A stretch of 64,000 nucleotides of DNA from Kineosporia babensis. GTDB taxonomy: Bacteria > Actinomycetota > Actinomycetes > Actinomycetales > Kineosporiaceae. Positions 2,930-51,704 of the stretch are shown one piece after another. The notes under the pieces were generated by a model that worked only from the letters and a program-made list of their open reading frames with translations, was not told the DNA's origin and did not search any database. The first letter of the stretch is position 1, and each line of letters opens with the position of its first letter. The stretch is from contig NZ_JAJOMB010000003.1 of the NCBI RefSeq assembly GCF_021129305.1, positions 434,001 to 498,000 of the forward strand. Direction: 5' to 3'. A program made the translations under genes and the position numbers.

Positions 2930-3519
2930 CAGGCAGCCGCCAGACGACCGGTGCCCGCGAGCCAAATGTTGAACGGGTCACCGGTGCTGGGCTGCGAGAC
3001 CTTGAACGTGAGCGGCAGCGACTGACAGTTCGGTGCCTTCTGGTTGCTCATCTGAATGTTGCCGGACTGCAGACACTGGTACATGATCGACCGCTGCGTG
3101 AAGTCCTGGGACTCCCAGCCGAGCATGGTCTTCACGCTGGCACCGAGGGCGGGCGGGCCGAGCTTGGTGACGGTCGTCGGACCGGTACCGCTGACGGTCG
3201 TGCTCGAGATGCCGTTGAACGCGAGGGCGTAGCTTCGGTCGGTGACGTGGGCTAGGTCGAACGCGAAACCAATCGCGCGGCTGACCTCAACCTCATCCAG
3301 GGGGTCGAGGTACTCGGCCACGGTGATGCCCTCAGACGTCACCTCGTAGCTGAACTGGGATCCGTCGCGGGTCACACCGCACAACTGCCACGCGACCGGC
3401 CACGCGTCAGTAAAAACCCCGCCAGCGGCGGTCATCGTGGGAAGAGTGGAGCCGAGAACAGCCCGGTACAAGTAACCGGGACCGACGGCTGTGGCATGAG
3501 GGACGACTGCGGCAGGCAA
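2929..3519 (-). CDS. Major tail (tube) protein
   Basis: A 196-aa beta-rich protein (PAAVVPHATAVGPGYLYRAV at the N-terminus) just upstream of the chaperone and tape measure genes, matching a siphovirus tail tube subunit in size and place. The start is TTG at 3519, chosen for a GGAGG five bases upstream. The 123-bp leader carries one good and one weaker copy of the conserved late promoter/leader element, consistent with a protein needed in many copies. Residues ~70-150 contain the central beta segments (ITVAEYLDP, SYALAFNGIS). Confidence 0.85.
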   Translation of the reverse strand: MPAAVVPHATAVGPGYLYRAVLGSTLPTMTAAGGVFTDAWPVAWQLCGVTRDGSQFSYEVTSEGITVAEYLDPLDEVEVSRAIGFAFDLAHVTDRSYALAFNGISSTTVSGTGPTTVTKLGPPALGASVKTMLGWESQDFTQRSIMYQCLQSGNIQMSNQKAPNCQSLPLTFKVSQPSTGDPFNIWLAGTGRLAAA

Positions 3520-3642: not shown

Positions 3643-4410
3643 TCAGGCGGTTATGGCCTCACGGTCCGGCAACACGTCCAGTAGTCCCTGCACCGAGAAC
3701 TCCAACGCTGCAGTCGTCTCCCACCATGAGCGCATCGCGGTCGTCGTCTTCTCCTGCTGGTCACGCTTGTCGACGTACGTGACTTCCTGCTCGCCCGCCT
3801 GCTTCATTGTGACGCCGCCCATCCGGAAGCGCTGCGGGTGTCGGCCCCAGTCTTTGCCTGCCTCGTCGAGCATTGCGCGCATCTGGCGTGTGCCCTTGCC
3901 CTGCAGTTTCTTGTGCGAGAACGCCGCCTGCGCGGCCATCGACACCGAGTTCCGCATGCAGTCGCGCTGGCGCCAGATCAGGTAATTCGCGGCCTCTACC
4001 GCGCTCGGCACGGTGAAGACTCGGGCATCGAACAGGGCAGGCGACGCCATGCCGCGCGGGTACTGGGCATTGAACGTCACCGATGCCAGCGCAGCGGCTA
4101 TCGACACCTGCTTCTGAATGACGCCACCGAACCACGGCTGCGATTCTGGGTTCAGGTCAGCGAAGATGACGCTGATCTCGTCAGACTGCGAGTGGGCGAG
4201 CACGGCGCCCTGAATCTCCGAGCACAGGGCCCGCGCTGTGGCGTCCAGCGTCTCGGCGAGATGCATATCGAACGGGCGCGGCAGGCCACGAGTCCAGCTG
4301 TGGAAGGCGCGGCCATCAACCCGCAGCACGGAGATTGAGTGCGGAGACAGCATCGAACGCTGCTCCGCCTCGTATGCCTTCATGCGGTCGCCGAGCGAAT
4401 CCCCAACCAT
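3643..4410 (-). CDS. Thg1-like tRNA-His guanylyltransferase / 3'-5' polymerase
   Basis: A 255-aa protein with the Thg1 family signatures in order: GDRMKAYE near the N-terminus, RVDGRAFHSWTRG (first metal-binding Asp, residue ~32), QSDEIS (second metal pair, ~75), QPWFGG, FDARVF, NYLIWRQRDCMRNSVS and SHKKLQGK. The family adds nucleotides in the 3'-5' direction to tRNA 5' ends; bacterial and phage Thg1-like proteins typically repair truncated tRNAs. It sits inside the late operon between tail terminator and major tail protein genes, where no tRNA function would be expected. All catalytic residues appear present, so activity is plausible. Confidence 0.9.
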   Translation of the reverse strand: MVGDSLGDRMKAYEAEQRSMLSPHSISVLRVDGRAFHSWTRGLPRPFDMHLAETLDATARALCSEIQGAVLAHSQSDEISVIFADLNPESQPWFGGVIQKQVSIAAALASVTFNAQYPRGMASPALFDARVFTVPSAVEAANYLIWRQRDCMRNSVSMAAQAAFSHKKLQGKGTRQMRAMLDEAGKDWGRHPQRFRMGGVTMKQAGEQEVTYVDKRDQQEKTTTAMRSWWETTAALEFSVQGLLDVLPDREAITA

Positions 4411-7936: not shown

Positions 7937-8467
7937 TCACATCAAGATGAGGGCCTGGGGTGCGACCCAGGCCAGGTCTGGCTCTAGAGCGACGGCGATG
8001 ATCTGCAGGAACGCGGCCCCGATCGGTGGGAGCGGCGAGAGCTGCCCGGCGTCGCGCAGGTACAGGGCCTGCCCCGGTGTGAGACCACCAGCGGGCCAGG
8101 GAAGCGATCCACCAGTGATGAGCGCGACCTCATCCCCAGCTTCCGCTGCGGCGGTCCACGTCACCATGACGAGCTGTCCCGCATCGGCCGGGTCGAACGC
8201 CGAGATGGGCCTGACGTGTCCAGTCTCAGTGAACGTGACCGCGAGAGGCGACGACAGGGGCTGGTCGGCGGTCGCGTGGATAACACCCATCTGCGAGAGC
8301 CGATCAGCCACGGACGCCGACCCGTTGGCAGGGTTCACACCCAACGTCTCCTGTACGGCCGTGATGGCGTCCTGGAGGTCGTTGATGTGTCCGGCCCGGA
8401 TCACAGACGTAGGCCCGTCATGCCGGTCGGGGAACACGTCCACAGCGTGTGGGTACGCCGTTGACAT
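7937..8467 (-). CDS. Structural protein with HINDLQDAI motif
   Basis: A 176-aa protein. Its N-terminus has VIRAGHINDLQDAITAVQET, a motif found in many actinophage tail and head fibre proteins, followed by GSASVADRL. The C-terminal part (ADAGQLVMVTWTAAAEAGDE, GGLTPGQALYLRDAGQLSP) parallels the beta domain of the neighbouring 179-aa protein. It lies in the capsid gene block under the inverted repeat at 8508-8606. Probably a virion surface protein. Confidence 0.55.
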   Translation of the reverse strand: MSTAYPHAVDVFPDRHDGPTSVIRAGHINDLQDAITAVQETLGVNPANGSASVADRLSQMGVIHATADQPLSSPLAVTFTETGHVRPISAFDPADAGQLVMVTWTAAAEAGDEVALITGGSLPWPAGGLTPGQALYLRDAGQLSPLPPIGAAFLQIIAVALEPDLAWVAPQALILM

Positions 8468-9926: not shown

Positions 9927-10300
9927 CAGGCCCTCCAGGAAACGTCGGGCCGGGCGTCTGCCGCTGCGGCGGTGGTGAGGGTGAAACCGAGGAGCTGGTC
10001 GGCGGGGTCGGTACCGCTGACCCACGCGGCGATCTTCCCCGCGGCAGCGGACTTGAAGCTGGTGCCTGCGGCGATCGCGGCCGTGGTCAGCGGGTTCTGG
10101 ACGCCGCCTCGAGAAACCGTGAGGCGCGCACCGGCCTTCGTGTCGTTCGTGGCGATCCCGACGACCTTGTTGCTGCCGCCCGCGGACGGGATCACGGTGT
10201 TGTCCGTGGACAGGACCACGACCTGACCGCCGACGATGTCAGCTCCGGCAGTGAAGGTGACCTCAGTGCCGGGCAGGTAGGTGGGCGTGTACTCAGGCAT
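9926..10300 (-). CDS. Head decoration protein (DUF2190-like)
   Basis: A 124-aa beta-barrel protein: YTPTYLPGTEVTFTAGADIV, GGQVVVLSTDNTVIPSAG, KVVGIATNDTKAGARLTVS. This is the pattern of DUF2190/lambda gpD-type decoration proteins that trimerise on capsids. The ATG at 10300 overlaps the end of the protease/scaffold gene by a few bases and is preceded by GGGGGTTGG acting as SD. An in-frame TTG at 10306 is less likely. Confidence 0.75.
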   Translation of the reverse strand: MPEYTPTYLPGTEVTFTAGADIVGGQVVVLSTDNTVIPSAGGSNKVVGIATNDTKAGARLTVSRGGVQNPLTTAAIAAGTSFKSAAAGKIAAWVSGTDPADQLLGFTLTTAAAADARPDVSWRA

Positions 10301-10895
10301 TGCCAACCCCCGAGTTCCACGCGTCCATCAGGGACTTGAACTCGTCGTCCTGCTGCACGTCGCTCGAGTGCCCGATCGCGGACAGCGGCACCGCCGACCC
10401 GGGAGCCCGGGAAGCGAGCAGCTTCTCGGCCGCCTCGGGGCTGGTGTCGTAGATCGCGCCGTAGTGGTCCTTGTCGGCCGGGGTGATCTTCCCCTGCTGA
10501 ACGGCGGACGCGAGAAGGGTCTCGCGCTTGGTGACGGCCTCGGCCTGCTTGCGAGTCGCGAGCTCCCCGGTGACCTTGGCGAGCTCGTCGGCGAGGGTCG
10601 CGTTGGTCTTCTCGAGCACACCAACCGATGCGGCGAGCTTCGCTTCGAACTTCGCGGTGAGTCGCGCTTCGAGGTCGCCAGATGCCTCGATTCGATCCGT
10701 CTGACCAAAGCTTCGATCATTCTGATGCTCGACGACAGCCGGAACTGCGGGCGTCTCGACGACGGTCGAATCCTTGGGTGTTTCGACGGGCGGGCCAGCG
10801 GCGGACTTCAGCTTTTCGAGGGCAGCGAGAATCGCCGCTTCGTCAGCCTGCTCGTCGACGCCGAGGGCCTCACGCATCTGCGGCGTGATGTCCAC
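10293..10895 (-). CDS. Nested scaffold protein (internal start of the protease gene)
   Basis: An in-frame GTG at 10895-10893 is preceded by TAGGAG at SD distance, and a late promoter/leader element (10930-10951) sits 35 bases upstream inside the protease coding sequence. The 200-aa product (VDITPQMREALGVDE onward) contains only the coiled-coil scaffold domain. This parallels lambda C/Nu3, where scaffold is translated from within the protease gene, so scaffold can outnumber protease. Inference from signals; the frame itself is certain. Confidence 0.7.
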   Translation of the reverse strand: MDITPQMREALGVDEQADEAAILAALEKLKSAAGPPVETPKDSTVVETPAVPAVVEHQNDRSFGQTDRIEASGDLEARLTAKFEAKLAASVGVLEKTNATLADELAKVTGELATRKQAEAVTKRETLLASAVQQGKITPADKDHYGAIYDTSPEAAEKLLASRAPGSAVPLSAIGHSSDVQQDDEFKSLMDAWNSGVGNA

Positions 10896-12113
10896 TGCTG
10901 TTGCTCCTAGGGACGATCCAATTGGATGTCCCAACCCCACGGCCGATGCTACCACCGAGTTGTGCATGCGGTGAGCGGCCAGCGCGGACTCGCTTGCAGC
11001 CAGTGGCGTGTACGTGACGGCGACCGGGGCGAGCTCTCCGATCTCGACTCCCCCGTCGTCGGTTTCGTCCACATCAGCGACCCACGACAGGCCATCCGGG
11101 TCCAGGTACACGACGTCATCGGCAAGGACCTCCCGGACGGTCAGATCCAAGCCCTCGACCTGCTCTTCAGCGGCGGCCTTCACCTTCTGCTTCTTGGAAC
11201 GCAGGTCGGCCTTCACGCGCTCGTCGGAGGGGTCGAACTTCTTGCCCTTGCGCTGGGCTTCCTTCCGTGCGGCCTTCCGGTCGGACGTAAGCTTCGCCGG
11301 ACTGCCGCCTTTCTTCGCGGACTTCAGCGTCGACAGCAGCGCCGGCGTCACGCGGCCCGTCGCCATGTTTCCCGACTGCCGCTGCCACGCCTTCACTGCA
11401 GCCTCAGTCGCCGGACCGAAGAGCCCGTCGATCCCGCCGTTCTTCCCAGACTTAGCGTCCAGGAAACCGAGACGGATCAACTCTTTCTGGAGCGCCCGGA
11501 CCTGCGGCGCTTGATCCTTCTTCGCCGAGTAGCCCGAGCCCTTGGAGACGAACCTGCCGCCCTCCCGCTTGTGCTTGCTCTCGTCGAACACGACGTTCCA
11601 CTTCGCCTCAAGCGGGATGCTCGCAGCCAGGCTCATCGCGGCCAGGTACTGCATGGGCTCCGAGGCGGCCTGCGGGATCTCGGCGAGCGACTGGATCGCA
11701 GGCTTCGTCACACCTAGCAGTGCGAGGCCCGTGACAACCATCCCCCAGGTTTGCCCGTCGCTCGTCTCGACGCCCAGGTCGGCCTCGATCGACCGCGACG
11801 GGTAGACCGCCGGGAGTTCCTCATCCAGCCACTCCGGGACCAGAAGGTCACCGATCAGGGAGTCGCCACCATCCGCGAGGCGGAGGTTCTTCACGACCCC
11901 GAGGCTGGGTTCGCCATCTCCGGTGGCCTGGATGTCGCCGGCGAAACGGTCATCGGTGTGGCCGCGCTTCAGTACGGGCGCACGGAAGTGCCCCGACTGG
12001 TAGGCGCGTACAGCGTCAGCGAGCTGGGACCGCGTGCAGTTCCACGGGCCGGTGCTGGCCGACCACGAGCCGACTCTCGCCAGCTCTATCCCGGAACGAT
12101 TGACCAGGGGCAT
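10293..12113 (-). CDS. Capsid maturation protease fused to scaffold, with inserted peptidoglycan-binding domain
   Basis: A 606-aa protein from ATG 12113 (TAATG overlap). Residues 1-160 resemble Mu-type/U35-like prohead proteases (APVLKRGHTDDRFAGDIQA, GDLLVPEWLDEELPAVYPSR). Residues ~210-280 form a PG_binding_1 domain (VRALQKELIRLGFLD, GIDGLFGPATEAAVKAWQR). A Lys-rich linker follows, then from ~405 a helical scaffold domain (ITPQMREALGVDEQADEAAI, coiled coil AKFEAKLAASVGVLEKTNAT). A cell-wall-binding domain in a capsid protease is unusual. The last 200 residues can also be made from an internal start. Confidence 0.8.
   Translation of the reverse strand: MPLVNRSGIELARVGSWSASTGPWNCTRSQLADAVRAYQSGHFRAPVLKRGHTDDRFAGDIQATGDGEPSLGVVKNLRLADGGDSLIGDLLVPEWLDEELPAVYPSRSIEADLGVETSDGQTWGMVVTGLALLGVTKPAIQSLAEIPQAASEPMQYLAAMSLAASIPLEAKWNVVFDESKHKREGGRFVSKGSGYSAKKDQAPQVRALQKELIRLGFLDAKSGKNGGIDGLFGPATEAAVKAWQRQSGNMATGRVTPALLSTLKSAKKGGSPAKLTSDRKAARKEAQRKGKKFDPSDERVKADLRSKKQKVKAAAEEQVEGLDLTVREVLADDVVYLDPDGLSWVADVDETDDGGVEIGELAPVAVTYTPLAASESALAAHRMHNSVVASAVGLGHPIGSSLGATAVDITPQMREALGVDEQADEAAILAALEKLKSAAGPPVETPKDSTVVETPAVPAVVEHQNDRSFGQTDRIEASGDLEARLTAKFEAKLAASVGVLEKTNATLADELAKVTGELATRKQAEAVTKRETLLASAVQQGKITPADKDHYGAIYDTSPEAAEKLLASRAPGSAVPLSAIGHSSDVQQDDEFKSLMDAWNSGVGNA
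10930..10951 (-). promoter_or_regulatory. Late promoter/leader element, copy 3 (inside protease gene)
   Basis: TAGCAT, 8 nt, GGGTTGGG on the minus strand, within codons for VVASAVGLGHP of the protease. It precedes the internal scaffold start at 10895 and the highly expressed decoration and capsid genes. Confidence 0.65.
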
Positions 12114-12379
12114 TAGGACTCCAGTTCTTTCAGCAGCGCCGTGACTGCGGCCCGCATCGTTGCCTTGTTGGCTTCCGGGACGTCCGTCCACGGCTTCCGA
12201 CTGGCTGCCTGGGTTTCCCAACCGTTCCCTGCAGCGGCTTTCTCGTATGCGTCGTGCATGACTTCGCAGAGGTGCTCCAGGCGGGCGCCGACTGGGGGCC
12301 GCGCGCCCGAGTTCCACGGCTTGCCCTGACGCCCGATAAAGGGCATCTCGTTGCCAGCGGCCACAGCGGTCCGCGTCAT
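12113..12379 (-). CDS. Small conserved phage protein, 88 aa
   Basis: ATG 12379 overlaps the upstream stop (ATGA), and its TAA overlaps the protease ATG. It has RLEHLCEVMHDAYEKAAAG, TQAASRKPWTDVPEANKATM and a helical C-terminus. The RKPWxxVPExNKxTMR signature recurs in small proteins of actinophages, of unknown role. An internal ATG (MPFIGRQGKPW) is a possible alternative start. Confidence 0.65.
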   Translation of the reverse strand: MTRTAVAAGNEMPFIGRQGKPWNSGARPPVGARLEHLCEVMHDAYEKAAAGNGWETQAASRKPWTDVPEANKATMRAAVTALLKELES

Positions 12380-12891: not shown

Positions 12892-13094
12892 GGTGATTCC
12901 TTCGCGGTGAATCCGATGCGAGCGACGGGCTCGCGGGTGTCGTGGTCCCAGTGCGGCGCCAACGACAGATCGCCGGATGTAGAGCCCTGCTGCTGCGGCT
13001 CCCGCTCGGCCTCGGAGTCGTTGCCCGCGCTGAAGTACAGGTCGAAACCAGCGATGTCGAGGGACGTCTTGAACCGGATCTTGGGGAACTTCAC
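12888..13094 (-). CDS. Small hypothetical protein, 68 aa
   Basis: GTG 13094 overlaps the portal stop (GTGA) and its own stop overlaps the exonuclease GTG. Sequence: KFPKIRFKTSLDIAGFDLYF, then a polar, Gln-rich part (EPQQQGS) and VARIGFTAKESP. No family recognised; translational overlaps on both sides argue that it is made. Confidence 0.55.
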   Translation of the reverse strand: MKFPKIRFKTSLDIAGFDLYFSAGNDSEAEREPQQQGSTSGDLSLAPHWDHDTREPVARIGFTAKESP

Positions 13095-15436
13095 AACGGC
13101 CCCCTAAAGAACGCTGGATCGCCCTGCTGTAGCGGCCCGATCGGACTGGCTGCCAGAATGCAGCGGCACCGGGACCAGCCCTCGCACGCCCGGTACCGGC
13201 CCAGTCCGAAGTCGACGAGTGCCGCGACAATGTCGGGGTACTGGGTGCCGTCGTGCTCAAGGCAAGCGGAACATGAGGACCTGTCACGAAGCGCGCTGTG
13301 GAACACCGTCCACGTCGTGCCCGGGGTCGCGTCGATGACGTGCTGCATGGCCTGCAACCTGCCGCCGAGCATGGCGTAGTTGATGGCGTCGTAGACGAGG
13401 GCGTCGAACCAGGGGCCGCGCGCTGCGTCTTCTAGTGCCTGCTCGATCGCGTCCGGATCGGCCTGCTGCGCCGCACGCTTCGCCATGGCCTCGAATGCGC
13501 CAGCGCCTCGCTCGGCCAGGAGGTCTGCCCATTCGGCGTCTTCCTCGGCCGCGCCACCGTCGGGGGCGTTGTCCGGGTTGATGCGGGGTCCGCCAGCGCG
13601 TCGCGCCTCACCGAGCGCCTGCTCTACCCCGGCCCGACGTGCGAGCCCCATCGCACCCCGCAGCGCCTCAGCAACGCCCTCCGGGGCCAGGTCCAGGGTG
13701 ACGCGCGCCAGGGCCAGGAGGCCGCCGCCCACCGCCGCAGACAAGGCCGCAGCAGACGCCGCCACCCACGCAGCAACCGCAGCCGCTACAGCCGCTTCTG
13801 CCAACGCCACCAGCGCGTCGTGGTCCTCGTCGATCGCCGCCGGATCGATCCCCGCAGCCCGCTCGGCGGGAGTCGGCTCACGGTACGGATCGCCCTCCGC
13901 AGCGTGCACGCGACCCTTGCCCGGCCACTGCCCGGTGGCCTCTTTATGTCTGTTGGCGCAGAAACCCTCGGCCTGACGCTTGGTCATGTGCTTGGCAGCG
14001 ATCGCTACACACCTGGACCAGTCCCCGGAAGAGTTCCAGCGAATCCGGGCAGCCAGAGCACCCGTCAGGTAGGCGCGGCGCAGATTCTCGGCGTTGCCCC
14101 TATTCCGGTCCAAGCCGCCAGCGGCAGCGACCTGCTCCGGCTCTGCCTCGACCGGGGGCGCCTCGGGATCGGGCTCGTTCTCGAAACCGACCATGCCGCC
14201 CGGCGCCGGAGGGAGCCCGTACGCCTCACGGACGTACGCCTCAAGCTCAGGGCCCGGAGTGATGACGCCGGCGGAGACGAGTGATCCGATGGTGCCCGCG
14301 ATGATCTGCGGGTCATCTTTTACGTCCGAGGCGACGATGGTGGGGACAGGCTCATCCGGGCCGAAGTTGTAGTCGACCAGCCTGCGGCACAGTTCGGTTG
14401 CCGTGTCGGCGATGGCCGCGCCGATGGCCTGAACCCCGTCGGCGAGGAGCGTCGAGAACGTGTCCCCGAGCGCGCGATTCCCGGAGTTGGTCGAGCCCAG
14501 GTCGAGCACCGACGCCAGGACCGCACGAGCCATTTGCTCGTCGTAGTAGCGGATCCGGGACATCGCGTCCGGCAGGGTTCCCTCGACGCCCTTGATCCGC
14601 AGCGTGAAACCCGGGGTGGCGGCGCCGCCTTCCTCGCCGACCCGGATGGCCTTCGCCATGTTGTGCGCTTCTCGGATCTGCGCCTCGGACGGGTTCGTGC
14701 CCGCGTTCGGCTCCATGACGGGAGTCCCGGCGGCGAACCTGCGCAGCCCGATGGCGTCGGCGCGGAGCACTTCCCACTTCAACGTCCACGGCGAGTAGCA
14801 CTCCCTCAGGAAGCTTCGCCCAGTCCAGACGGCGCCCTCGCGTTCGTGGACGTACCAGAGCAGCCGCGCACCGGGGATCTCGATGCCCTGCGGTCCGTAC
14901 CGCTTGTCGCCCGGCCGCCCGGCCTGGGTGACGTGCTTCAGGGTGCCGTCGTCGTTGACCTCGATGCCAGTGATCGTGGACGGCAGGCGTTCGGGGAGCG
15001 CTGCCAGGTAGGCGTATCCGTCGTCGCGGACCTCGTAGATGGGCTCGAACGGCATGAACCCGTAAACGAGGTACTGCAGCGCGAGCCGTAGGTGCTCGCT
15101 CCACTGGACGCCTTTGCGGCGGTACTCGCCCGGCTCCTGGTCCATCCCGAGGATCGGCATCCCCAGGGAGTCGGCGCAGACGCGAACCGCTTCGTCGGAC
15201 GCACCGCGGGGGTCGATCCGCCACTTCAGCTTCGTCAGCGGGGTGTTGTAGACCTTCAGGTTCGATGAGACCGTCGCGTCCGTGCGGAGCTTCCGGTACG
15301 TCGACACGGATCGCGGAAAGAGGAGGTCCGGGATGTGTTCTTGGTCGTCGATCGCGCCCATCCCGGAGCCCCACCAGGACCCGGTGATGCTGTTCGAGAC
15401 AACGCCAAGGGGAGCCGTCGGCAGAGACTCAGCCAC
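13091..15436 (-). CDS. Portal protein fused to MuF-like head morphogenesis domain
   Basis: 781 aa from GTG 15436, chosen because AAGGG lies about 8 bases upstream; an upstream GTG at 15445 would leave no SD spacing. Residues ~60-440 form a portal of the Mu gp29/DUF935 type (LKWRIDPRGA, LRLALQYLVYGFMPFEPIYE, LDLGSTNSGNRALGDTF). An Ala-rich helical linker follows (residues ~545-600). The C-terminal ~130 residues are MuF-like with CSACLEHDGTQYP and CEGWSRCRC, normally a separate gene. It delivers DNA through the capsid vertex. The first gene of the capsid operon, preceded by late promoter copy 4. Confidence 0.85.
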   Translation of the reverse strand: MAESLPTAPLGVVSNSITGSWWGSGMGAIDDQEHIPDLLFPRSVSTYRKLRTDATVSSNLKVYNTPLTKLKWRIDPRGASDEAVRVCADSLGMPILGMDQEPGEYRRKGVQWSEHLRLALQYLVYGFMPFEPIYEVRDDGYAYLAALPERLPSTITGIEVNDDGTLKHVTQAGRPGDKRYGPQGIEIPGARLLWYVHEREGAVWTGRSFLRECYSPWTLKWEVLRADAIGLRRFAAGTPVMEPNAGTNPSEAQIREAHNMAKAIRVGEEGGAATPGFTLRIKGVEGTLPDAMSRIRYYDEQMARAVLASVLDLGSTNSGNRALGDTFSTLLADGVQAIGAAIADTATELCRRLVDYNFGPDEPVPTIVASDVKDDPQIIAGTIGSLVSAGVITPGPELEAYVREAYGLPPAPGGMVGFENEPDPEAPPVEAEPEQVAAAGGLDRNRGNAENLRRAYLTGALAARIRWNSSGDWSRCVAIAAKHMTKRQAEGFCANRHKEATGQWPGKGRVHAAEGDPYREPTPAERAAGIDPAAIDEDHDALVALAEAAVAAAVAAWVAASAAALSAAVGGGLLALARVTLDLAPEGVAEALRGAMGLARRAGVEQALGEARRAGGPRINPDNAPDGGAAEEDAEWADLLAERGAGAFEAMAKRAAQQADPDAIEQALEDAARGPWFDALVYDAINYAMLGGRLQAMQHVIDATPGTTWTVFHSALRDRSSCSACLEHDGTQYPDIVAALVDFGLGRYRACEGWSRCRCILAASPIGPLQQGDPAFFRGPL

Positions 15437-15469
15437 CGCTACCACCCTTGAGACGCGCCATTAGGACGT

Positions 15470-34899: not shown

Positions 34900-35058
34900 A
34901 TGGCGCAGGACGACGAAGCAGCCCAACGACACGACGACACAGATCAACTGATCCTCGTCCTCATCGATGAGATCCGCGGGCTGCGCGAAGACGTCCGGGC
35001 GCTACCCGCCCAGATCCGCCCCAAGAACTACCCCCTTCTGCGGCGCATCAACAACTAG
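34900..35058 (+). CDS. Small helical protein, 52 aa
   Basis: ATG 34900 preceded by CGGGGGAAACC. MAQDDEAAQRHDDTDQLILV then LIDEIRGLREDVRALPAQIR is one amphipathic helix, ending in a basic tail (KNYPLLRRINN). Its stop overlaps the terminase stop by 4 bp on the opposite strand. Unknown function; plus-strand single gene. Confidence 0.6.
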   Translation: MAQDDEAAQRHDDTDQLILVLIDEIRGLREDVRALPAQIRPKNYPLLRRINN

Positions 35059-36671
35059 AGCGGCGCCGAGTACAGGTCCGTCCCCCCGGCCAGGTGGTCC
35101 ATCGGGGATGGCTCCGGCGGTGTCCAGTGCTGGCCGTGACCGCCGCGGGAGTTGTCGGGCGGAACCCAGTAGGCGCCCCTGATGCGGTGCGCGTAGGCGA
35201 GCACGTCGACTTGGTCGTCGTGTGCGCCGCCGCCGGGGAACAGGGTGATCTCGTTTTCGAAGTCCGTCCACCAGTGCGCGGCTGGTGGGAACAGGATCCC
35301 GGTCTTCATGCGCTTCGCGGCGGGCACGGCTCGCGTGTACTTGTCCGTGTCAGCTTCGAGGGGTTCGACGATCGCTCCTGCGCGGGCTGCCGTGTATACG
35401 AGGTCGGTGCCGTACTGGGAGCCCTCGACGTAGATGGGGCACGACCAGGCTGCTTGCAGTGGCGCGACGACTTCGTCCCAGTGGTCGGCGGGTTCGACTT
35501 GCTTGCGGCGTAGATCGAGCATGATGAGCTCGCCAGTGCCTGCGATGGCCCACGCCGCTGCGACGGTGAAGTCCGCGGAAGTCCTGAGTGATGCGGCTAG
35601 GTCGACGGTGATGAACCGGTAGGCGTAGTGCAGGTTCTCGTCGGGCCCTGGCCGTCCGGGGATCTTGACGGTCCACCGGTCGGCGCCTTGCTGCCAGAAC
35701 CGGAAGTCGGCGCGCTTGAACAGGCCGCCCTGTGCGGGCATGGGGCGCCCTTGGTAGAGGGCGGCGAAGTCTGCCTCCCCTACGTCGGCGCGGGTCTTCT
35801 GCCACTGTTCGGGGGTGCGGCCTCGCGCGGACTTCAGCCACTCGCCGGGCTTTCGGCCGAGTGGGTCCTTGGCCTTGTTCGGAGTCCCAAGGTTGGGCGC
35901 GCCTGCGGGCCCGGCGTACTGGGGCTCTTCGACGAGGGCGGGGATGTTGAGGTACTCCCACGCGGCGCCGTTGTCGGCCTGCTGCTGGCCGATGGGATCG
36001 TCTTCTGTCCACCTGGTGTGGTCCATGACGACCATCGCCTTGGGGCCGAGACGGGGTCGGATGTTGGACTGCCACTGGTCTTTCCAGAGTCTCTTGAATG
36101 CTCCGGACCGGGCCGTCCTTCGGTCTTTCACCAAATCGTCACAAATGATGCGATCACCAGGCTTGCCTGCGATGCCACCGGTCAGTGACATGCACGAGAC
36201 CGAGCCTCGGTAGCCGTCGAGCTGCAACCGGGCCACCGCTTCCGATCCAGGCCGCAGTGAAAGCTGAAGGTCCACGCCATACAACGCGTCGTCCCCTGAG
36301 TGCGCCTGCAACGCCTCCTTGATCGCGCGACCCCAACGCCAGCTCGTCTCGTTGTCGTAGCTGATGATGAGGATCCGCAGGTCCGGGTTTCGCAGCCATA
36401 GCCAAATGGGATATGCGTAGGCAATTAGGGTCGACTTGCCCTCCTGGGGGGCCATCGACACCGCCAGGAACTTCGGGTTCTCCTCCGACTCCGCAGCCAC
36501 CTCATGAGCGACCAGCGCATCCGAGATGCATCGCAACGCCGGCGTCTCGATGTAGTCCGGCATCAACGCGAGCAAGAGATCCAGGGGCCCCGGAAAAGGC
36601 TGCTGCCGCCAGTTCTTCCCGCGCATCCCCCTCTCTAGTCCGGCGAGGAACGCGGCTTCGTTGTACGGCAA
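35055..36671 (-). CDS. terL: Terminase large subunit
   Basis: 538 aa. ATPase: Walker A-like APQEGKSTL (~70), ALIISYDNE-type strand, Walker B RIICDDLV (~165). Nuclease: FITVDLAASLRTSADF (~370), VEGSQYGTDLVY, and GGGAHDDQVDVLAYAHRI (~490) supply the acidic residues of the RNase H-like fold. It packages DNA into the prohead. Preceded by late promoter copy 9. It is separated from the small subunit gene by a group of minor genes and two plus-strand genes. Confidence 0.92.
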   Translation of the reverse strand: MPYNEAAFLAGLERGMRGKNWRQQPFPGPLDLLLALMPDYIETPALRCISDALVAHEVAAESEENPKFLAVSMAPQEGKSTLIAYAYPIWLWLRNPDLRILIISYDNETSWRWGRAIKEALQAHSGDDALYGVDLQLSLRPGSEAVARLQLDGYRGSVSCMSLTGGIAGKPGDRIICDDLVKDRRTARSGAFKRLWKDQWQSNIRPRLGPKAMVVMDHTRWTEDDPIGQQQADNGAAWEYLNIPALVEEPQYAGPAGAPNLGTPNKAKDPLGRKPGEWLKSARGRTPEQWQKTRADVGEADFAALYQGRPMPAQGGLFKRADFRFWQQGADRWTVKIPGRPGPDENLHYAYRFITVDLAASLRTSADFTVAAAWAIAGTGELIMLDLRRKQVEPADHWDEVVAPLQAAWSCPIYVEGSQYGTDLVYTAARAGAIVEPLEADTDKYTRAVPAAKRMKTGILFPPAAHWWTDFENEITLFPGGGAHDDQVDVLAYAHRIRGAYWVPPDNSRGGHGQHWTPPEPSPMDHLAGGTDLYSAPL

Positions 36672-42386: not shown

Positions 42387-43325
42387 TCATCCGACCTTGG
42401 CGAGGTGTGGCTTGGACTCCGCGGCGGCCTTGGCGGCGAACCAGAACGAGCGTCCGCCGCCGTGCCGTTCGGACCACTCCTTCCACGAGAAGACCCAGGG
42501 CTCGGCGCCCTCGTGGGAGCGGATCGCGGACGCGACGAGGCGGGCTGCCTCGTCGGCCGAGGGTGGGGTCTTGGACGGTGCCGCGGACTGGTTCGTGGAT
42601 GCTGCCCGCGGACGCTTCACGGACTGCCGTTCGGCTCGCTCGGCGCGGCGTGCTTCGGTCTCGGCCTGGACGCGGGCGACCTCTGCTGCGGACGCTGCTT
42701 CATGTCGTGCGACCTCGGCGTCTGCCGCTGCTTTCTCCGCCTCGGCGGCAGCGCGTGAAGCTTCGGCTGATGCAGCAGCTGCCTGCTCCTGAGCTGCAGC
42801 TTCTATCTCGGCCTGACGCGCGGCGATGTCGGCGATGGACCGTGCTTCGTCGATCCGGCGCTGGGCGGCTGCGCGTTCGCGGGCGTCTTCTGCGTCGAGT
42901 GCGCGCTGGGCCTTGGCGCGCTCGGCGGCGTCCACGACGGCCAGGTCTTCAGCGTCCTTCTTGGACGGCTTGGGCTTGGAGTAGAGGCGGGAGAGGACGA
43001 GGACCAGGACGACGCCGACGCCGGCCAACTTGTACGCCTCGGCCGAGTCCGCGGCGGTGTACGCGGACCCGCCGATGACGGACAGCGCGAGGATGCCGAG
43101 GGCGGCGAGTCGGTCGAGTCCGTGGCGGCGCTCAAGGGCGTCCACGACGTAGCAGTCGATGGCGATCGGGAGGAGCAGCGGCAGGCCGATCGGGATGCTG
43201 TCCGCGCCGAAGGGGTGCCACATGGGTAGGCCTGCGGCTTCTCCGGCGGCGATCTCTGCGTGGCTGGTCATGGCGAGCGTGGCGACTAGGGAGGCGCGTC
43301 GCAGCCAGGGCGATCCGGAGTTCAT
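42387..43325 (-). CDS. DUF2637/Spd-like membrane protein
   Basis: 312 aa from ATG 43325, immediately below the GTCTCA repeat array. Four hydrophobic segments in residues 10-120 (SIPIGLPLLLPIAIDCYVVD, ALGILALSVIGGSAYTAADS, LAGVGVVLVLVLSRLYS), an Ala/Glu/Arg coiled coil (residues ~130-240) and a C-terminal domain with SADEAARLVASAIRSHEGAE. The layout resembles DUF2637/SpdB-type proteins of Streptomyces conjugative elements, which help plasmid spreading between hyphal compartments. Confidence 0.65.
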   Translation of the reverse strand: MNSGSPWLRRASLVATLAMTSHAEIAAGEAAGLPMWHPFGADSIPIGLPLLLPIAIDCYVVDALERRHGLDRLAALGILALSVIGGSAYTAADSAEAYKLAGVGVVLVLVLSRLYSKPKPSKKDAEDLAVVDAAERAKAQRALDAEDARERAAAQRRIDEARSIADIAARQAEIEAAAQEQAAAASAEASRAAAEAEKAAADAEVARHEAASAAEVARVQAETEARRAERAERQSVKRPRAASTNQSAAPSKTPPSADEAARLVASAIRSHEGAEPWVFSWKEWSERHGGGRSFWFAAKAAAESKPHLAKVG

Positions 43326-43333
43326 GAGTCCTC

Positions 43334-43485
43334 GTCTCAGGCCCCGTCTCACGGGGCGTCTCAATGTCGTCTCAGGTGTGTCTCATGGGCGTCTCGTCTC
43401 ACCGTCTCAGCAGGTCAGAGGGGGGTGGCTGTGCTTGACGGTGGATGCCACCCCCCGATGGCGTTGACTGTTGAGACTGTGAGAC
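43334..43485. repeat. GTCTCA repeat array (candidate clt/TRS locus)
   Basis: GTCTCA begins at 43334, 43346, 43358, 43369, 43380, 43396 and 43404, with a GTCTCG at 43391; inverted copies (TGAGAC) begin at 43472 and 43480. Most starts are 11-12 bp apart. The array fills the gap between the translocase stop (43507) and the DUF2637-like start (43325). In Streptomyces plasmids TraB binds 8-bp repeats (TRS) in the clt locus next to traB; position and periodicity here match that plan. Confidence 0.75.
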
Positions 43486-43506
43486 ACGTGCCGGTGTAGG
43501 CGACTG

Positions 43507-45678
43507 TCAGGAAGGGTCAGGCTTGATGGCGTAGCCGCCCTCGGGCAGCTTCTTCACGTTGCCCATCGCGTCCAGGCGGCGGTACACGGTGGCCCGCTCG
43601 ATACCGAACCCGGCCGCCTTCAGGGCCTCCAGGATCTTCGTCACGGGCAGACCAGCCGGACCCGCCTCGGCAAGAAGGCGCGTGATCTCGTCGACGTCCG
43701 ACAGCTTCACGTCCCAGCCCTCGACCAGTTCGTTGAACGCGGCATCCACGTCAGCGGCAGGACGCTGCTCAACTGCCGGCTTGTCTCCGGCTTCCTCGGC
43801 GGCGCGCTCGGCTTGAACCTCCCGGGCCCTCTCCTTCGCCTTCTCGAGAGCGTCCTGCATGTCCTGCTGGGCGCGGGCCATGCCGCCAGGGCCCTTGTAC
43901 CTGTCGTCGAGCTCCGGCAGCTGGATAGCCTTCGGCCGCTCGGGCTGCGGGTCGGACGGGGTACGGGGTGCGGGTGGCATCGGTGCTTCTTCTCCTTGGG
44001 TTTTGAGCCAGTCGCCGAAGCGGATCCAGCGGTTCTTGTAGTCGTCCCCGGCGGCTTGGGCCGACGGTTCGTCGAGGGTGGGACGGCGGGCGAGGGTCGC
44101 CTTGGCGATCTCCTCGATCTGGTGCGGCAGGAGCTGGTAGGCGACGAGGGACCGCATGGGGGCGCCGGGCTGGCGGATGATCCCAGTGCCGGGGTTCGCG
44201 GCTTCGTCGATCATCTTTTGGCAGTCCCAGCCGAGGACGTATGCGGCTTCGGCGGCGTCTGCCGGGCGCATCGCGATCTTCGTCCCGGCCTGGGCCTGGA
44301 TGGCGGCGGGTACGAGGTCGCTGGTGCCGCGGACGCTGGACAGGACGATCGCGAGACGCGCGGCGCGGCTGATCGTGATGAGCGACTCGAGGCCGGTCGC
44401 GAGGCGGGTGTCGCCGCGGTTCGCTGCGGTCGCTTCGGCGCCTTCGTCGAGGGTGATGACGATCCCCGGGATTTCCGGGCTGATCGTGAGCTTGTCGACG
44501 TTCAGTTTGCGCATCAGCCGCTTGTAGGCCTGCTTGCGGGCCTTCGCGACGCGGATGGCGGCGTTGATCATGCGGACGGCTTCGTCGACGGTGGACGCGA
44601 CCCAGTCGATCGGTGGCGCGTCCATTTCTCCGTCGAGCCATGGCAGGAGCCACGGCGACGACATGCCGGACCCGTTGAGGTCGATGTGCCAGTTCAGGGC
44701 GTCGGTGCAGCGGGCGATCATCGCGTTGATGACCTGCAGCAGGTTCGTTTTTCCGGACCCGATCTGTCCGGCGATGAATGCCCGCGAGTTGAGGAGGTCG
44801 AGGAGGGCTTGGGCGCCGCCCTTGTGCATGCCGACCGCGAGGAGATCGTTCAGTGAGATCGGCGAGTAGTCGTCGGGGAACGGGATCGCTTGGGCGGTCG
44901 TGTCGACGGTAGACACCTTCAGCAGGACGTGCCCGCGGTCCTTGCCGGGTTCGATCTCAACGCCGCAACCGTTGGGGAGAGGTACGTCGGTGGCGAGGCC
45001 GGGCGTGAAGTTCGCGAGCCGCTGGCGGGTCACACCCCCGGCGGGCAGTCGGGCCTCAAGGGTGTACCCGACACCGGACGGCCAGTACTCGACGCCGACG
45101 ACGGTCACGCCCTGGACTTTGCAGACGCGCGCGATCCGCTCGTTCCACTCGGCGCCGAACTCGGCCAGCGCCTTGTTCGCGGCGATCTTGACTTCGGTCG
45201 CAGCGGCCTCGTCCTTCGCAGCCTTGGCGCGGGCCTTCACGCGGCTCTCATGGTCAGCCATCTCCGGTGCGGCCAGGGCGGCGCCGACGGTCCCGGCGAT
45301 CAGCCACCCGAAAGCGGTCGGCCACGCGGCGCCACCGAGGGTCCACGTCATCCACCCGCCCGCGCCGAGCCAGCACGCGGCCCGGGCAGCGAGCCCTTCT
45401 GGGGAGATGTCCTTCATCGCGGCGCGGACGGTCACACCGACTGCGGCGGCGACACCGACACCGATCCCACACACGGGTGCCACGTCGGTGATGTGACCGA
45501 CCAGAGCGGTAGCGGCGAGAGCTCCACCGGCGTTGATCGGGGCGGCGATCGGTCCGTGCCGCCAGCTGGTCCAGTCGACCTCGACCCGCGGGGGCGCTGG
45601 CGGTTCTTCCTTCTTGCCCTTGGCCGGGCGCGGCGGGGTGGCCGCGCCCGGGGTCGGGGTCTCGGTCGCAGTGGTCAT
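43507..45678 (-). CDS. TraB/FtsK-type DNA translocase
   Basis: 723 aa from ATG 45678 (ATGA overlap). N-terminal two to four membrane helices (residues ~50-130, including ALAATALVGHITDVAPVCGI and GWLIAGTVGAAL). Motor: Walker A GQIGSGKTNLLQ (~305), Walker B GIVITLDEGAE (~405), arginine-rich SRAARLAIVLSSVRGTSDLV. C-terminal winged helix (ADVDAAFNELVEGW, GLPVTKILEALKAAGFGIER, ATVYRRLDAMG) like FtsK gamma/TraB DNA-reading domains. In Streptomyces such hexameric pumps transfer double-stranded DNA between mycelia. Confidence 0.85.
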   Translation of the reverse strand: MTTATETPTPGAATPPRPAKGKKEEPPAPPRVEVDWTSWRHGPIAAPINAGGALAATALVGHITDVAPVCGIGVGVAAAVGVTVRAAMKDISPEGLAARAACWLGAGGWMTWTLGGAAWPTAFGWLIAGTVGAALAAPEMADHESRVKARAKAAKDEAAATEVKIAANKALAEFGAEWNERIARVCKVQGVTVVGVEYWPSGVGYTLEARLPAGGVTRQRLANFTPGLATDVPLPNGCGVEIEPGKDRGHVLLKVSTVDTTAQAIPFPDDYSPISLNDLLAVGMHKGGAQALLDLLNSRAFIAGQIGSGKTNLLQVINAMIARCTDALNWHIDLNGSGMSSPWLLPWLDGEMDAPPIDWVASTVDEAVRMINAAIRVAKARKQAYKRLMRKLNVDKLTISPEIPGIVITLDEGAEATAANRGDTRLATGLESLITISRAARLAIVLSSVRGTSDLVPAAIQAQAGTKIAMRPADAAEAAYVLGWDCQKMIDEAANPGTGIIRQPGAPMRSLVAYQLLPHQIEEIAKATLARRPTLDEPSAQAAGDDYKNRWIRFGDWLKTQGEEAPMPPAPRTPSDPQPERPKAIQLPELDDRYKGPGGMARAQQDMQDALEKAKERAREVQAERAAEEAGDKPAVEQRPAADVDAAFNELVEGWDVKLSDVDEITRLLAEAGPAGLPVTKILEALKAAGFGIERATVYRRLDAMGNVKKLPEGGYAIKPDPS

Positions 45679-47741
45679 GCCTGGTTGTTCACCGTGTCCC
45701 ACATGGCCTCGTTGGGCCGCGGGTTCCGCAGACGCTCGAGTTCCTTCTCGTGGACGACCTCGAAAACGTTCCGGATTTCCCCGGCGGTCGCGGCGGTCGA
45801 CATCTGGCAGGCGATGACGGGTTCGATGGCGTTGCGGACGGCGGGGTCGATGGGCAGCCGGTCGGTGCCGGCCTGGAGGACCTGGAGGACGGACGCGACG
45901 GAGGCGAGGACTTCTTCGAGCCCGGCCATGTCTTCGCCCCACTGGACCATGCCTTCGGGGGCGTAGGTGGAGGCGAGGGCGGCCATTTCGTCGGCCTTGG
46001 ACTTGAGCTGGAGCGCAAACTGGCTCATGGCTTCGGTGTTCCTTTCGGGCTGGGCTGTGTCTGGGCCGGGGCCCGGGGTGACGGTGTCGGCGACGGTCGG
46101 GTTGTTGAGTTCGTTTTCCTCGCGGCGCTTGCGGGCTTCTCGCTTTTCTCTGGCGGCGCGGGGGTTGTCGGGGATCGTCTTGCCGAGGGCGCGTAGGACG
46201 GCGGCGACGGCGAGCCATCGGATCCAGGCGCCGCTGGTGCGGATGCCGCGCCAGGCGGCGACGGTTCCGGCGATGCCGAGGGCGAGGGCGGTGCGGGTGA
46301 TCCGGCGCCGGAACTTCGCGAGCCGGCCGAGTTTCTGGCCTTGCGCCTTTCCGTGCTTGGCCTGCTGCCGGGCGATCGCTGACCCTGCCGCGCGGGCGAT
46401 CTGCAGAGGTGACTTGCCGCGCGCTGACGCGGCGCCGCGGATCGCTGCCCGCCCGGTCTGGTAGCCGCGTTTCGCTGCACCGCCAGCCCTCTTGAGGCCG
46501 GCGAAACCTTTGCGCCCGCCCCAGCCCGCGAGCCTGCCTGCCTTCGATCCGGCGACCGACTGCATGGCCCGGCCGAGACGTGACGACTTCGCGGGCGCGT
46601 TCCGTGCCCCCTTCGTTGCCGCGCCCTTGGCGGATCCTGCGCGCCTGCTGGCGCCAGTCTGGCCACCTGCGAGGCGGGATTTCAGGCGGCCGAGCGGACC
46701 CCGGGCGGTGCGGTGAGCTCCACCGCCACGGGTTCGGCACCCGAACCCGCCGACGCCCTTGGCGTGGCCACCGGACTTGCCGCCTCCAGCGGATCCGCCT
46801 GCTTTCCCGGAGTTCGGGCGTCGACCGAGGATTCCCTTGCCGCTGCCGCCGCCAGCGCTCCTGCCGGAGGCGGCAGTCTTGCGTCCGAGGATGCTGCCGC
46901 TGCGACCGGACGTTCCCGGGCGAGACAGCAGACCAGATCCACCGCCGCGGCTACCGCCACGCGACGGCGCGGTGATACCGCCGGTGCGGCTGGCCGTTGA
47001 CGGCTTGGGCGATGACTTCGAGGCAGCGCCCGTCGAACCCCTGACCGATCCCGTGCCGGGCTTGCCGATCCCGGTCTTCCCTGCACCGATCCCGGCGCCC
47101 TTCGACAGGGGCGAGGCGGGCTTACTCGACCGCACCGCGCCACGGCCAGGCCCGGCAGCACCGACCCGGCTGGCGCCCGTGCTTCCCCGACTGCCACCGC
47201 CAGCTTTCGGCGCCGCGAAACCAGAGCCCTTGCGGGCTCCCCGGGACGGCATTGACAAGCCAGTGAACGCTCCACGGCCAGGGGTCGCGTGTCGGCCCCC
47301 GTTCGTCGGGCGTCCACCAGCGCGTGAGGCGGTCGGCTTCTTCCGGGCGCGTTCGGCCTGCTTGCGGGCTTTCTCGGCTTCCTTGAGTGCCTTCGTGGCG
47401 GTCTTCGGGTCGGGCTTGCCTGCCTGGGCGGCCTTCTCGCGCTGGCGTGCACGGTGCGCGGCGTAAGCGGCGGCGCCTGTAGCGGCAGCTGTTCCACCCG
47501 CGACGGCGAGACCGGCGGGGCCCCCGGTCATCCAGGCGGCGCTTCCTGCGATCGTTGTCGCGTTGGTCGCGCCGATAGCGGCGACGGGGCCCTGGATGAT
47601 GAGCCGTTTGACGCCCTCGACCATCTCTTCGATGTCGTCGAGGACGCCGTCGTTGTCGGGCTCCGGGACGGCCTGCATGCCAGTGTCGGCCTGCGGGTTG
47701 CCGCAAGCGGGCGTCTCGACGGTTTCGGTGGTGGCTGTCAT
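45675..47741 (-). CDS. Large basic low-complexity membrane protein of transfer module
   Basis: 688 aa from ATG 47741. An acidic N-terminus, a hydrophobic pair (AAIGATNATTIAGSAAWMTG, GLAVAGGTAAATGAAAYAAH), then ~350 residues of Gly/Ser/Arg/Lys low complexity (KGAGIGAGKTGIGKPGTGSV), another membrane segment (RTALALGIAGTVAAWRGIRT) and an ordered C-terminal helical domain (FALQLKSKADEMAALASTYA). Directly upstream of the translocase with ATGA overlap. Long basic proteins of this style precede tra genes in actinomycete conjugative elements; DNA or cell-wall contact is possible. Confidence 0.65.
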   Translation of the reverse strand: MTATTETVETPACGNPQADTGMQAVPEPDNDGVLDDIEEMVEGVKRLIIQGPVAAIGATNATTIAGSAAWMTGGPAGLAVAGGTAAATGAAAYAAHRARQREKAAQAGKPDPKTATKALKEAEKARKQAERARKKPTASRAGGRPTNGGRHATPGRGAFTGLSMPSRGARKGSGFAAPKAGGGSRGSTGASRVGAAGPGRGAVRSSKPASPLSKGAGIGAGKTGIGKPGTGSVRGSTGAASKSSPKPSTASRTGGITAPSRGGSRGGGSGLLSRPGTSGRSGSILGRKTAASGRSAGGGSGKGILGRRPNSGKAGGSAGGGKSGGHAKGVGGFGCRTRGGGAHRTARGPLGRLKSRLAGGQTGASRRAGSAKGAATKGARNAPAKSSRLGRAMQSVAGSKAGRLAGWGGRKGFAGLKRAGGAAKRGYQTGRAAIRGAASARGKSPLQIARAAGSAIARQQAKHGKAQGQKLGRLAKFRRRITRTALALGIAGTVAAWRGIRTSGAWIRWLAVAAVLRALGKTIPDNPRAAREKREARKRREENELNNPTVADTVTPGPGPDTAQPERNTEAMSQFALQLKSKADEMAALASTYAPEGMVQWGEDMAGLEEVLASVASVLQVLQAGTDRLPIDPAVRNAIEPVIACQMSTAATAGEIRNVFEVVHEKELERLRNPRPNEAMWDTVNNQA

Positions 47742-50936: not shown

Positions 50937-51704
50937 GTGGCCCCAGAAGACGCGCAGCATGTAGTCATCGCCAACGCCCTGAAGCGGCGCATAGAGGACG
51001 GCGAGCTACTGCCGGGGTCGCGCATACCGTCCGAGCAGGCCCTGGCGGATGAGTTCGGCAGGCCGCGGCCGATCGTCCGGATGGCCCTCAACATCCTTCG
51101 CAGCAACGGCCTCATCGACACGCGCCCGGGGCGAGGCACGTACGTACGGGAGAAACCCGCGGTGATCGTCCGGCGCTCGGACAGGTACAAGCGAGGAGCG
51201 CCTGGCGGGCTACCGACGTCGCCCCTCTGGCGGGACGCTGTCAGCGCTGGACGTGCACCGGCTTTCGACCCGGAACCTCGAACGGTCACTGAGCGGGCGA
51301 GCGAACAGATCGCCTACCGCCTGCAGATCGAGCCCGGCGACCCGGTCATGCACACCAGCTACCGGTGGGTGGCAGACGGTCAGCCCGTGCAACTCTCCGA
51401 GTCGTGGGAACCGATGGCGATCGTCGGCGGGACAGCGGCGGAAGAGCCAGAGACTGGGCCGGGCGCCGGCTTGGGTGTGATTGCTCGGATGGACTTGATC
51501 GGGGTCCGGATCGACACCGTGTGGGAGGGCGTCCGGACGCGCCCGTCAACGGTCGAGGAGCGCCGTCAGTTGGCGATCCCTGAGGACGTGTGGGTCATCG
51601 TGATCCAGCGGACGTACACGGCCGGGGAGATGCCGGTGGAGACGTGCGACATCGTGATAGCCGCGGACCGGTACGAGCTCGAGTACATGATCCCGATCGA
51701 CTAG
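50937..51704 (+). CDS. GntR/UTRA regulator (KorA-like)
   Basis: 255 aa from GTG 50937. N-terminal GntR winged helix (IANALKRRIEDGELLPGSRI, PSEQALADEFGRPRPIVRMA, LRSNGLIDTRPGRGTYVRE). C-terminal UTRA effector fold (RLQIEPGDPVMHTSYRWVAD, GVIARMDLIGVRIDTVWEGV, VWVIVIQRTYTAGEMPVETC). In Streptomyces plasmids and AICEs KorA/KorSA of this type repress tra and pra and themselves. Its place beside xis-like and upstream of spd/tra-like genes fits that role. Confidence 0.8.
   Translation: MAPEDAQHVVIANALKRRIEDGELLPGSRIPSEQALADEFGRPRPIVRMALNILRSNGLIDTRPGRGTYVREKPAVIVRRSDRYKRGAPGGLPTSPLWRDAVSAGRAPAFDPEPRTVTERASEQIAYRLQIEPGDPVMHTSYRWVADGQPVQLSESWEPMAIVGGTAAEEPETGPGAGLGVIARMDLIGVRIDTVWEGVRTRPSTVEERRQLAIPEDVWVIVIQRTYTAGEMPVETCDIVIAADRYELEYMIPID

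What the first reader, a model, noticed from the sequence alone, without database searches (positions are those of the whole stretch)
43334..43485. GTCTCA array next to a TraB-like gene: candidate clt/TRS transfer locus in a phage
Seen: eight GTCTC(A/G) copies in one orientation at mostly 11-12 bp spacing, plus two inverted copies, within 152 bp directly 3' of the translocase gene. Known: Streptomyces TraB binds 8-bp TRS repeats in clt with its C-terminal winged helix to transfer double-stranded DNA. Inferred: this array is the recognition site of the encoded translocase.
Basis: partly seen in the sequence, partly recalled or inferred. Interest (0 to 1): 0.88.

Follow-up and report, generated by a model that had tools for sequence, protein, structure and literature searches.

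The report
Prophage DNA-transfer site beside its motor
A prophage in an actinobacterial chromosome carries a cluster of short DNA repeats beside a gene for a DNA-pumping motor, and comparison with over 100 related elements shows that such repeats change in step with the motor's DNA-reading domain, so they are very probably the motor's own docking site, of the kind Streptomyces plasmids use to pass double-stranded DNA between cells.

Summary
The array is real: eight GTCTC(A/G) on + and two GTCTCA on -, in 152 bp starting 22 bp after the stop of an FtsK/TraB-like translocase gene. No 6-mer in 60 simulated windows exceeded 4 copies per 75 bp.

The clt/TRS reading is well supported, though binding and transfer are untested. 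(1) A same-genus prophage keeps all eight repeat units (0/40 bases changed) while spacers drift (10/40) and the next gene is replaced. (2) Relatives on phages, plasmids and chromosomes carry arrays at the same place with private motifs. (3) Over 103 loci, array motif tracks the translocase's C-terminal winged helix (partial Mantel r 0.88; 0.62 in 23 non-redundant loci), not its motor. Motors about 95% identical with unrelated winged helices have unrelated arrays, and recognition-helix changes go with single-base changes in the repeats. (4) An 8-bp core, TGACCTGC, sits between the array arms here, in many relatives and in pIJ101's clt region.

The host element is a chromosomal prophage of at least about 90 kb. 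New: a phage-borne clt with a new motif, the conserved core, and a readable helix-repeat code giving candidate clt sites for many elements. Mating or movement inside hyphae: open.

The parts
43334..43409 (-). Right arm of the array: eight GAGAC units (seven TGAGAC) in one orientation, mostly 11-12 bp apart
   Evidence: all 40 unit bases conserved in G008 while 10 of 40 spacer bases changed
43410..43417 (-). Conserved core TGACCTGC between the two arms
   Evidence: exact in 46 of 127 regions 3' of homologous translocases, 0 for three control 8-mers; also in the pIJ101 clt region
43420..43456 (-). Hairpin, stems GGGGGGTGGC / GCCACCCCCC (43447-43456 and 43420-43429)
   Evidence: (I3); stems identical in G008
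43472..43485 (-). Left arm: two GTCTCA copies in opposite orientation, next to the translocase stop
   Evidence: inverted repeat I1 with the right arm
43507..45678 (-). FtsK/TraB-like DNA translocase, 723 aa: predicted N-terminal helices, motor with Walker A (304-311), C-terminal winged helix (about 659-718)
   Evidence: phrog_31069 E 7.6e-105; FtsK and TcpA motors by sequence profile and Foldseek; winged helix
42387..43325 (-). 312-aa SpdB-like membrane/coiled-coil protein directly after the array; replaced by a different gene in G008
   Evidence: no Pfam, PHROG or NCBIfam hit, so assignment is by position and composition only
45675..47741 (-). 688-aa low-complexity protein upstream of the translocase; a protein of roughly 560-770 aa often sits there in relatives
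50937..51704 (+). GntR/UTRA-type regulator (pIJ101 also has a GntR regulator next to its clt region)
35055..36671 (-). Terminase large subunit
   Evidence: phrog_38 E 1.1e-79; Terminase_6N/6C
13091..15445 (-). Portal protein (Mu type)
   Evidence: phrog_113, PF06074
8994..10025 (-). Major capsid protein
   Evidence: phrog_1650, PF25209
27377..28423 (-). Tyrosine integrase
   Evidence: phrog_1, PF00589

Best explanation
43327-43506 is a clt-like loading site for the adjacent translocase. The C-terminal winged helix of the translocase reads TGAGAC through its third helix (IERATVYRRLDAM). Copies about one helical turn apart would collect several subunits on one face of the DNA and build a hexamer, which would then pump the double-stranded prophage DNA across a membrane or septum. 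Two inverted copies, a hairpin and the core TGACCTGC complete the site; the core and flanking repeats are also found in the pIJ101 clt region. Shown here by sequence: anatomy, conservation, positional homology, covariation. Inferred: binding, hexamer loading, dsDNA transfer.
For: Chance clustering excluded. G008 keeps 0/40 changed bases in repeat units against 10/40 in spacers (Fisher p 0.001), and conservation stops where the array stops, with the following gene replaced. The rest of the winged helix has diverged between the two, but helix 3 keeps ATVYR..DAM. Private-motif arrays at the same place: P1312 GTCAC, pFQ12 GACGCAA, pSQ10 CGTTAC, NBC_01309 GAGTAC, and many chromosomal loci. Partial Mantel winged helix~array given motor: r 0.88 (n 103), 0.62 (n 23, p 0.0005), 0.41 without the CTTGTC clade; motor given winged helix about 0 or negative except 0.13 in one subset. 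Natural swaps: L096 versus L116/L124/L109/L087, motors 94-95% identical, unrelated winged helices, CTTGTC versus CCAGTA. Helix-level code: GKDRKTVR with CCCASTA, [G/R]RSRQAVR with GCCASTA, GKGRESVR with GGCAGTA. The core TGACCTGC is also in the pIJ101 clt region. Precedent: pWTY27 clt, 175 bp at the 3' end of traA, repeats plus inverted repeats, bound by TraA in EMSA/footprint (PMC3583192).
Against: No binding or transfer data. Winged helix and array are adjacent and can be co-inherited, so part of the covariation is linkage; the helix-level changes reduce but do not abolish this. The window's own motif is known from two genomes only. Overall similarity to pIJ101 TraB is remote (27% over 128 aa). 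Not all relatives have an array there (ZL12, Hiyaa, Galactica and several Streptomyces plasmids do not). AlphaFold confidence for the winged helix is moderate.
Confidence: 0.86

Rival explanations
1. The array is the translocase's docking site, but the motor serves to move prophage DNA inside the host (across hyphal septa or at cell division) rather than in mating between cells. (This shares the recognition step with the best explanation and differs only in purpose, so the two confidences overlap.)
For: The motor is FtsK/SpoIIIE-like; phages, one of them described as behaving lytically, carry it too; spread functions act within mycelium in Streptomyces (PMC4170104).
Against: The closest characterised analogues (pIJ101, pWTY27) need tra and clt for transfer between strains.
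Confidence: 0.35
2. Operator array for a separate regulator (for example the GntR/UTRA protein at 50937-51704), controlling the following gene.
For: The array lies just upstream of the 312-aa gene; a GntR regulator is encoded nearby.
Against: The array stays the same in G008 although the gene behind it is replaced; motif follows the translocase's winged helix across elements; no promoter-like site found, with a scan that covers sigma-70 types only.
Confidence: 0.06
3. Replication iterons or a partition centromere of a phage-plasmid.
For: Direct repeats at helical spacing are typical of both; the element has a Rep/helicase-loader-like gene.
Against: That gene lies 8.7 kb away; arrays in relatives sit next to the translocase gene whatever else follows; covariation is with the translocase.
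Confidence: 0.04
4. Only a transcription terminator or attenuator: the inverted arms and hairpin fold as RNA between two genes.
For: The region folds better than shuffles (z -2.6, folded as single-stranded DNA); hairpin conserved in G008.
Against: No U-tract terminator found there, no Rfam match; a hairpin does not need eight same-orientation copies with invariant units.
Confidence: 0.03
5. KOPS/SRS-like polarity signal read during translocation of the whole element.
For: FtsK and SpoIIIE read short oriented motifs with a winged-helix gamma domain (established knowledge; FtsK gamma appears).
Against: Outside the array TGAGAC shows no strand bias in the 96-kb region (10 against 12, minus the array).
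Confidence: 0.02

Closest known systems
clt/TRS of Streptomyces conjugative plasmids (pIJ101, pWTY27, pJV1, pSVH1) with TraB/TraA
   Same: FtsK-like motor with a C-terminal winged helix; short repeats plus inverted repeats, at the 3' end of tra in pWTY27; in pIJ101 the same core TGACCTGC between repeat arms.
   Different: Carried by a tailed prophage; repeat TGAGAC is not a published TRS as far as I could find; the translocase is only remotely related to pIJ101 TraB; pIJ101's clt lies near korB, not next to tra.
Thermobifida phage P1312 ORF63 region
   Same: Phage-borne translocase with an array (GTCAC type) and TGACCTGC directly 3' (also in metagenomic contigs L158, L159).
   Different: Different motif and different C-terminal domain; its paper only notes similarity to FtsK and does not mention clt or conjugation.
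Actinomycete ICEs (AICEs)
   Same: Integrase, Rep-like and tra genes; homologous translocases with arrays occur on large, probably chromosomal Streptomyces contigs.
   Different: This element also carries terminase, portal, capsid and tail genes and is at least about 90 kb. No clt had been described for the AICE pSAM2 (PMC9513070).
Plasmid-phage pZL12
   Same: About 90 kb, phage genes plus a related translocase.
   Different: No array directly 3' of its translocase.

Membership tests
Streptomyces-type TraB/clt transfer module | FtsK/SpoIIIE-type motor ATPase | tested here: met
   Walker A GQIGSGKT at 304-311
Streptomyces-type TraB/clt transfer module | N-terminal membrane anchor | tested here: inconclusive
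   predicted helices 45-135 but pLDDT mostly below 55; no dedicated TM predictor available
Streptomyces-type TraB/clt transfer module | C-terminal winged-helix DNA-binding domain | tested here: met
   H-H-H-E-E topology in two models; neighbours are nearly all winged-helix domains, Z up to 6.2, rmsd 2.9, 65 aligned; moderate model confidence
Streptomyces-type TraB/clt transfer module | cis-acting array of short repeats near the tra gene | tested here: met
   presence of the array; cis-action itself not testable
Streptomyces-type TraB/clt transfer module | Repeat sequence specified by the winged helix | tested here: met
   covariation across the family; by sequence comparison only, and the window's own subfamily contributes two members
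Streptomyces-type TraB/clt transfer module | Core TGACCTGC of the pIJ101 clt region present (proposed here, not an established criterion) | tested here: met
Streptomyces-type TraB/clt transfer module | Physical binding and dsDNA transfer between cells | not testable with these tools
   needs gel shift and mating assay
Streptomyces-type TraB/clt transfer module | Accompanying spd genes | tested here: inconclusive
   adjacent membrane/coiled-coil gene without family match
FtsK KOPS / SpoIIIE SRS system | Oriented motif polarised along the replicon | tested here: not met
   10 against 12 copies of TGAGAC outside the array
AICE | Integrase, Rep and Tra without virion genes | tested here: not met
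   terminase, portal, protease and capsid genes present

The most novel reading that the evidence does not exclude
A tailed temperate phage carries a complete, self-recognising dsDNA conjugation module (translocase plus clt), so that its genome can pass from cell to cell as naked DNA through a translocase pore as well as in virions.
Probability: 0.45. Interest if true: 0.85.

Novelty: new variant of a known kind. Interest (0 to 1): 0.73.

Why it matters
Clt sites have been described for few plasmids, and none for the model AICE pSAM2; whether elements use only their own TraB or hijack others is an open question (PMC9513070). The rule found here (look 3' of the translocase, find the repeat around TGACCTGC, read it against helix 3) supplies candidate clt sites for many plasmids, chromosomal elements and phages and predicts which translocase can move which element. 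Natural winged-helix/array swaps make specificity testable by simple domain exchanges. It also suggests that some actinophages have a second, conjugation-like route of spread.

Tried and rejected
Pfam, NCBIfam and PHROGs give no name to the 312-aa and 688-aa neighbours. Rfam: no match. KOPS-like polarity: no bias. Viral-contig scans with the window, G008 and pFQ12 proteins found no relatives; P1312's found near-identical phages. pWTY27 is not in the collections and the EMBO J 2011 TraB paper is not held, so the TGACCTGC core was not checked in pWTY27 or pSVH1. No exact direct repeat of 18 bp or more was found as attachment site in the 124 kb examined, so the ends of the prophage are open. FtsK gamma appears among the weak Foldseek matches of the winged helix but not in the re-aligned list; this absence is no evidence against it.

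Full report
Observation. On the + strand, seven GTCTCA and one GTCTCG lie at 43334-43409 (spacings 12, 12, 11, 11, 11, 5, 8), and two GTCTCA on the - strand at 43472-43485. The genes run on the - strand, so in gene direction the order is: translocase stop (43507), two GTCTCA, a hairpin GGGGGGTGGC...GCCACCCCCC, TGACCTGC, eight GAGAC units, start of a 312-aa gene (43325). The density is far above chance, and in the 9.4-Mb genome only this place has such a run apart from one unrelated tandem repeat.

Setting. The window is part of a 623-kb contig (C23). It carries terminase, portal (Mu type), head protease, major capsid, tail proteins and a tyrosine integrase. A same-genus genome, G008, holds a syntenic prophage over at least -7.4 to +83.6 kb in window coordinates. 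Beyond the left side lie NRPS and glucanase genes, beyond the right window edge DnaB, a DNA methylase and DpdA. So this is most simply an integrated prophage of at least about 90 kb; its ends were not determined.

Translocase. 723 aa, best match phrog_31069 (E 7.6e-105). A profile of relatives matches FtsK and the TcpA coupling protein, and Foldseek ranks the same two first. pIJ101 TraB is a remote homologue (hhalign probability 96.6%). The C-terminus is predicted as a winged helix (H659-675, H679-688, H695-704, strands 708-711 and 715-718, repeated alone), with structural neighbours that are nearly all winged-helix DNA-binding domains; model confidence is moderate.

Conservation. In G008 the translocase is 81% identical. 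All 40 bases of the eight GAGAC units are unchanged while 10 of 40 spacer bases differ (Fisher p 0.001). The hairpin stems and TGACCTGC are identical. DNA similarity ends with the array: the following gene is a different one. The site therefore goes with the translocase gene, not with the gene it precedes. Although the winged helices of the two have otherwise diverged, the predicted recognition helix keeps ATVYR..DAM.

Positional homologues. Relatives of the translocase occur on phages, plasmids and chromosomes of actinobacteria. Directly 3' of the gene, many have arrays of other motifs, again in both orientations: P1312 GTCAC, pFQ12 GACGCAA, pSQ10 CGTTAC, NBC_01309 GAGTAC, pDSM40587 with a longer unit; CTTGTC and CCASTA in Streptomyces, CGGAAC, GTCCCA and others elsewhere. 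Among 127 distinct loci, 103 have a 6-mer present at least five times in the 250 bp around and after the stop. Some relatives have none there (ZL12, Hiyaa, Galactica, several plasmids).

Covariation. Array similarity correlates with winged-helix similarity after removing motor similarity (partial Mantel r 0.88, n 103; 0.62 with 23 loci of motor distance at least 0.4; 0.41 with the large CTTGTC clade left out; p at most 0.001 in all). Motor similarity explains little once the winged helix is known. L096 has a motor 94-95% identical to those of L116, L124, L109 and L087 but an unrelated winged helix, and its array is CTTGTC instead of CCAGTA. Because the two parts are neighbours, one recombination event could carry both, so the finer level matters more. 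In the CCASTA clade, GKDRKTVR helices go with CCCASTA (42 of 45 sites), [G/R]RSRQAVR with GCCASTA (87 of 105), GKGRESVR with GGCAGTA (6 of 7) (first two letters counted). L110, a relative of the CTTGTC type with an altered helix (RRPVIQRWL), has CTGTCAC. Mantel p-values take no account of the phylogeny beyond the motor distance.

Core. TGACCTGC occurs exactly in 46 of 127 regions within 300 nt after the stop and with one mismatch in 37 more; its reverse, complement and reverse complement occur in none. The background elsewhere in the same loci is 0.02 per 300 nt. It lies between the arms in clades whose repeats have nothing in common. In pIJ101 it lies between korA and korB, flanked by GTTGC repeats, where the literature places clt (close to korB, about 54 bp, three 5-bp repeats; as summarised in PMC3583192). 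I found no report of this core in the papers I could search. pIJ101 has two further copies elsewhere, so the 8-mer alone is not diagnostic.

Interpretation. Precedent: in pWTY27, 175 bp at the 3' end of traA with repeats and inverted repeats is needed for transfer and bound by TraA (PMC3583192); TraB of pSVH1 reads 8-bp repeats with helix 3 of its winged helix (same source, citing Vogelmann 2011). The window's site has this anatomy and passes every test that sequence allows. I conclude that it is the recognition and loading site of the encoded translocase (0.86). That the module moves the prophage between cells is inferred; movement within the host remains possible.

Novelty. The mechanism is a known kind. 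New here are a phage-borne site with a new motif, the conserved core, and the helix-repeat correspondence across about 100 loci. Relevant open question: PMC9513070 asks whether elements use their own TraB or hijack another and notes that no clt is described for pSAM2.

Noticed in passing
window 42387-43325 versus G008 (L006 from about 3887): The gene right after the array is replaced by an apparently unrelated membrane-protein gene in the otherwise syntenic prophage.
   Followed up: partly
window 10293-12317: Head maturation protease interrupted by a peptidoglycan-binding domain (protease matches at residues 71-225 and 475-663, PG_binding_1 at 270-331): an unusual fusion.
   Followed up: no
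window 3643-4410: Thg1-like tRNA-His guanylyltransferase encoded in the prophage.
   Followed up: no
L155 13369-16144 (about window +77 to +80 kb): DpdA-like (deazapurine-in-DNA) gene next to a C5 DNA methylase: possible DNA modification of the phage.
   Followed up: no
L096 versus L116, L124, L109, L087: Natural exchanges of C-terminal winged helix plus array behind nearly identical motors in Streptomyces elements.
   Followed up: yes
L149 (pIJ101) 2999-3006 and 8121-8128: Two further TGACCTGC copies outside the clt region, one just upstream of CGTCACGTGACG palindromes.
   Followed up: no
G000:C16:56123-56158 (L001): Perfect 15-bp tandem repeat GTCTCAGAGTCCTTG, the only other GTCTCA run in the genome by the pattern used.
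   Followed up: no
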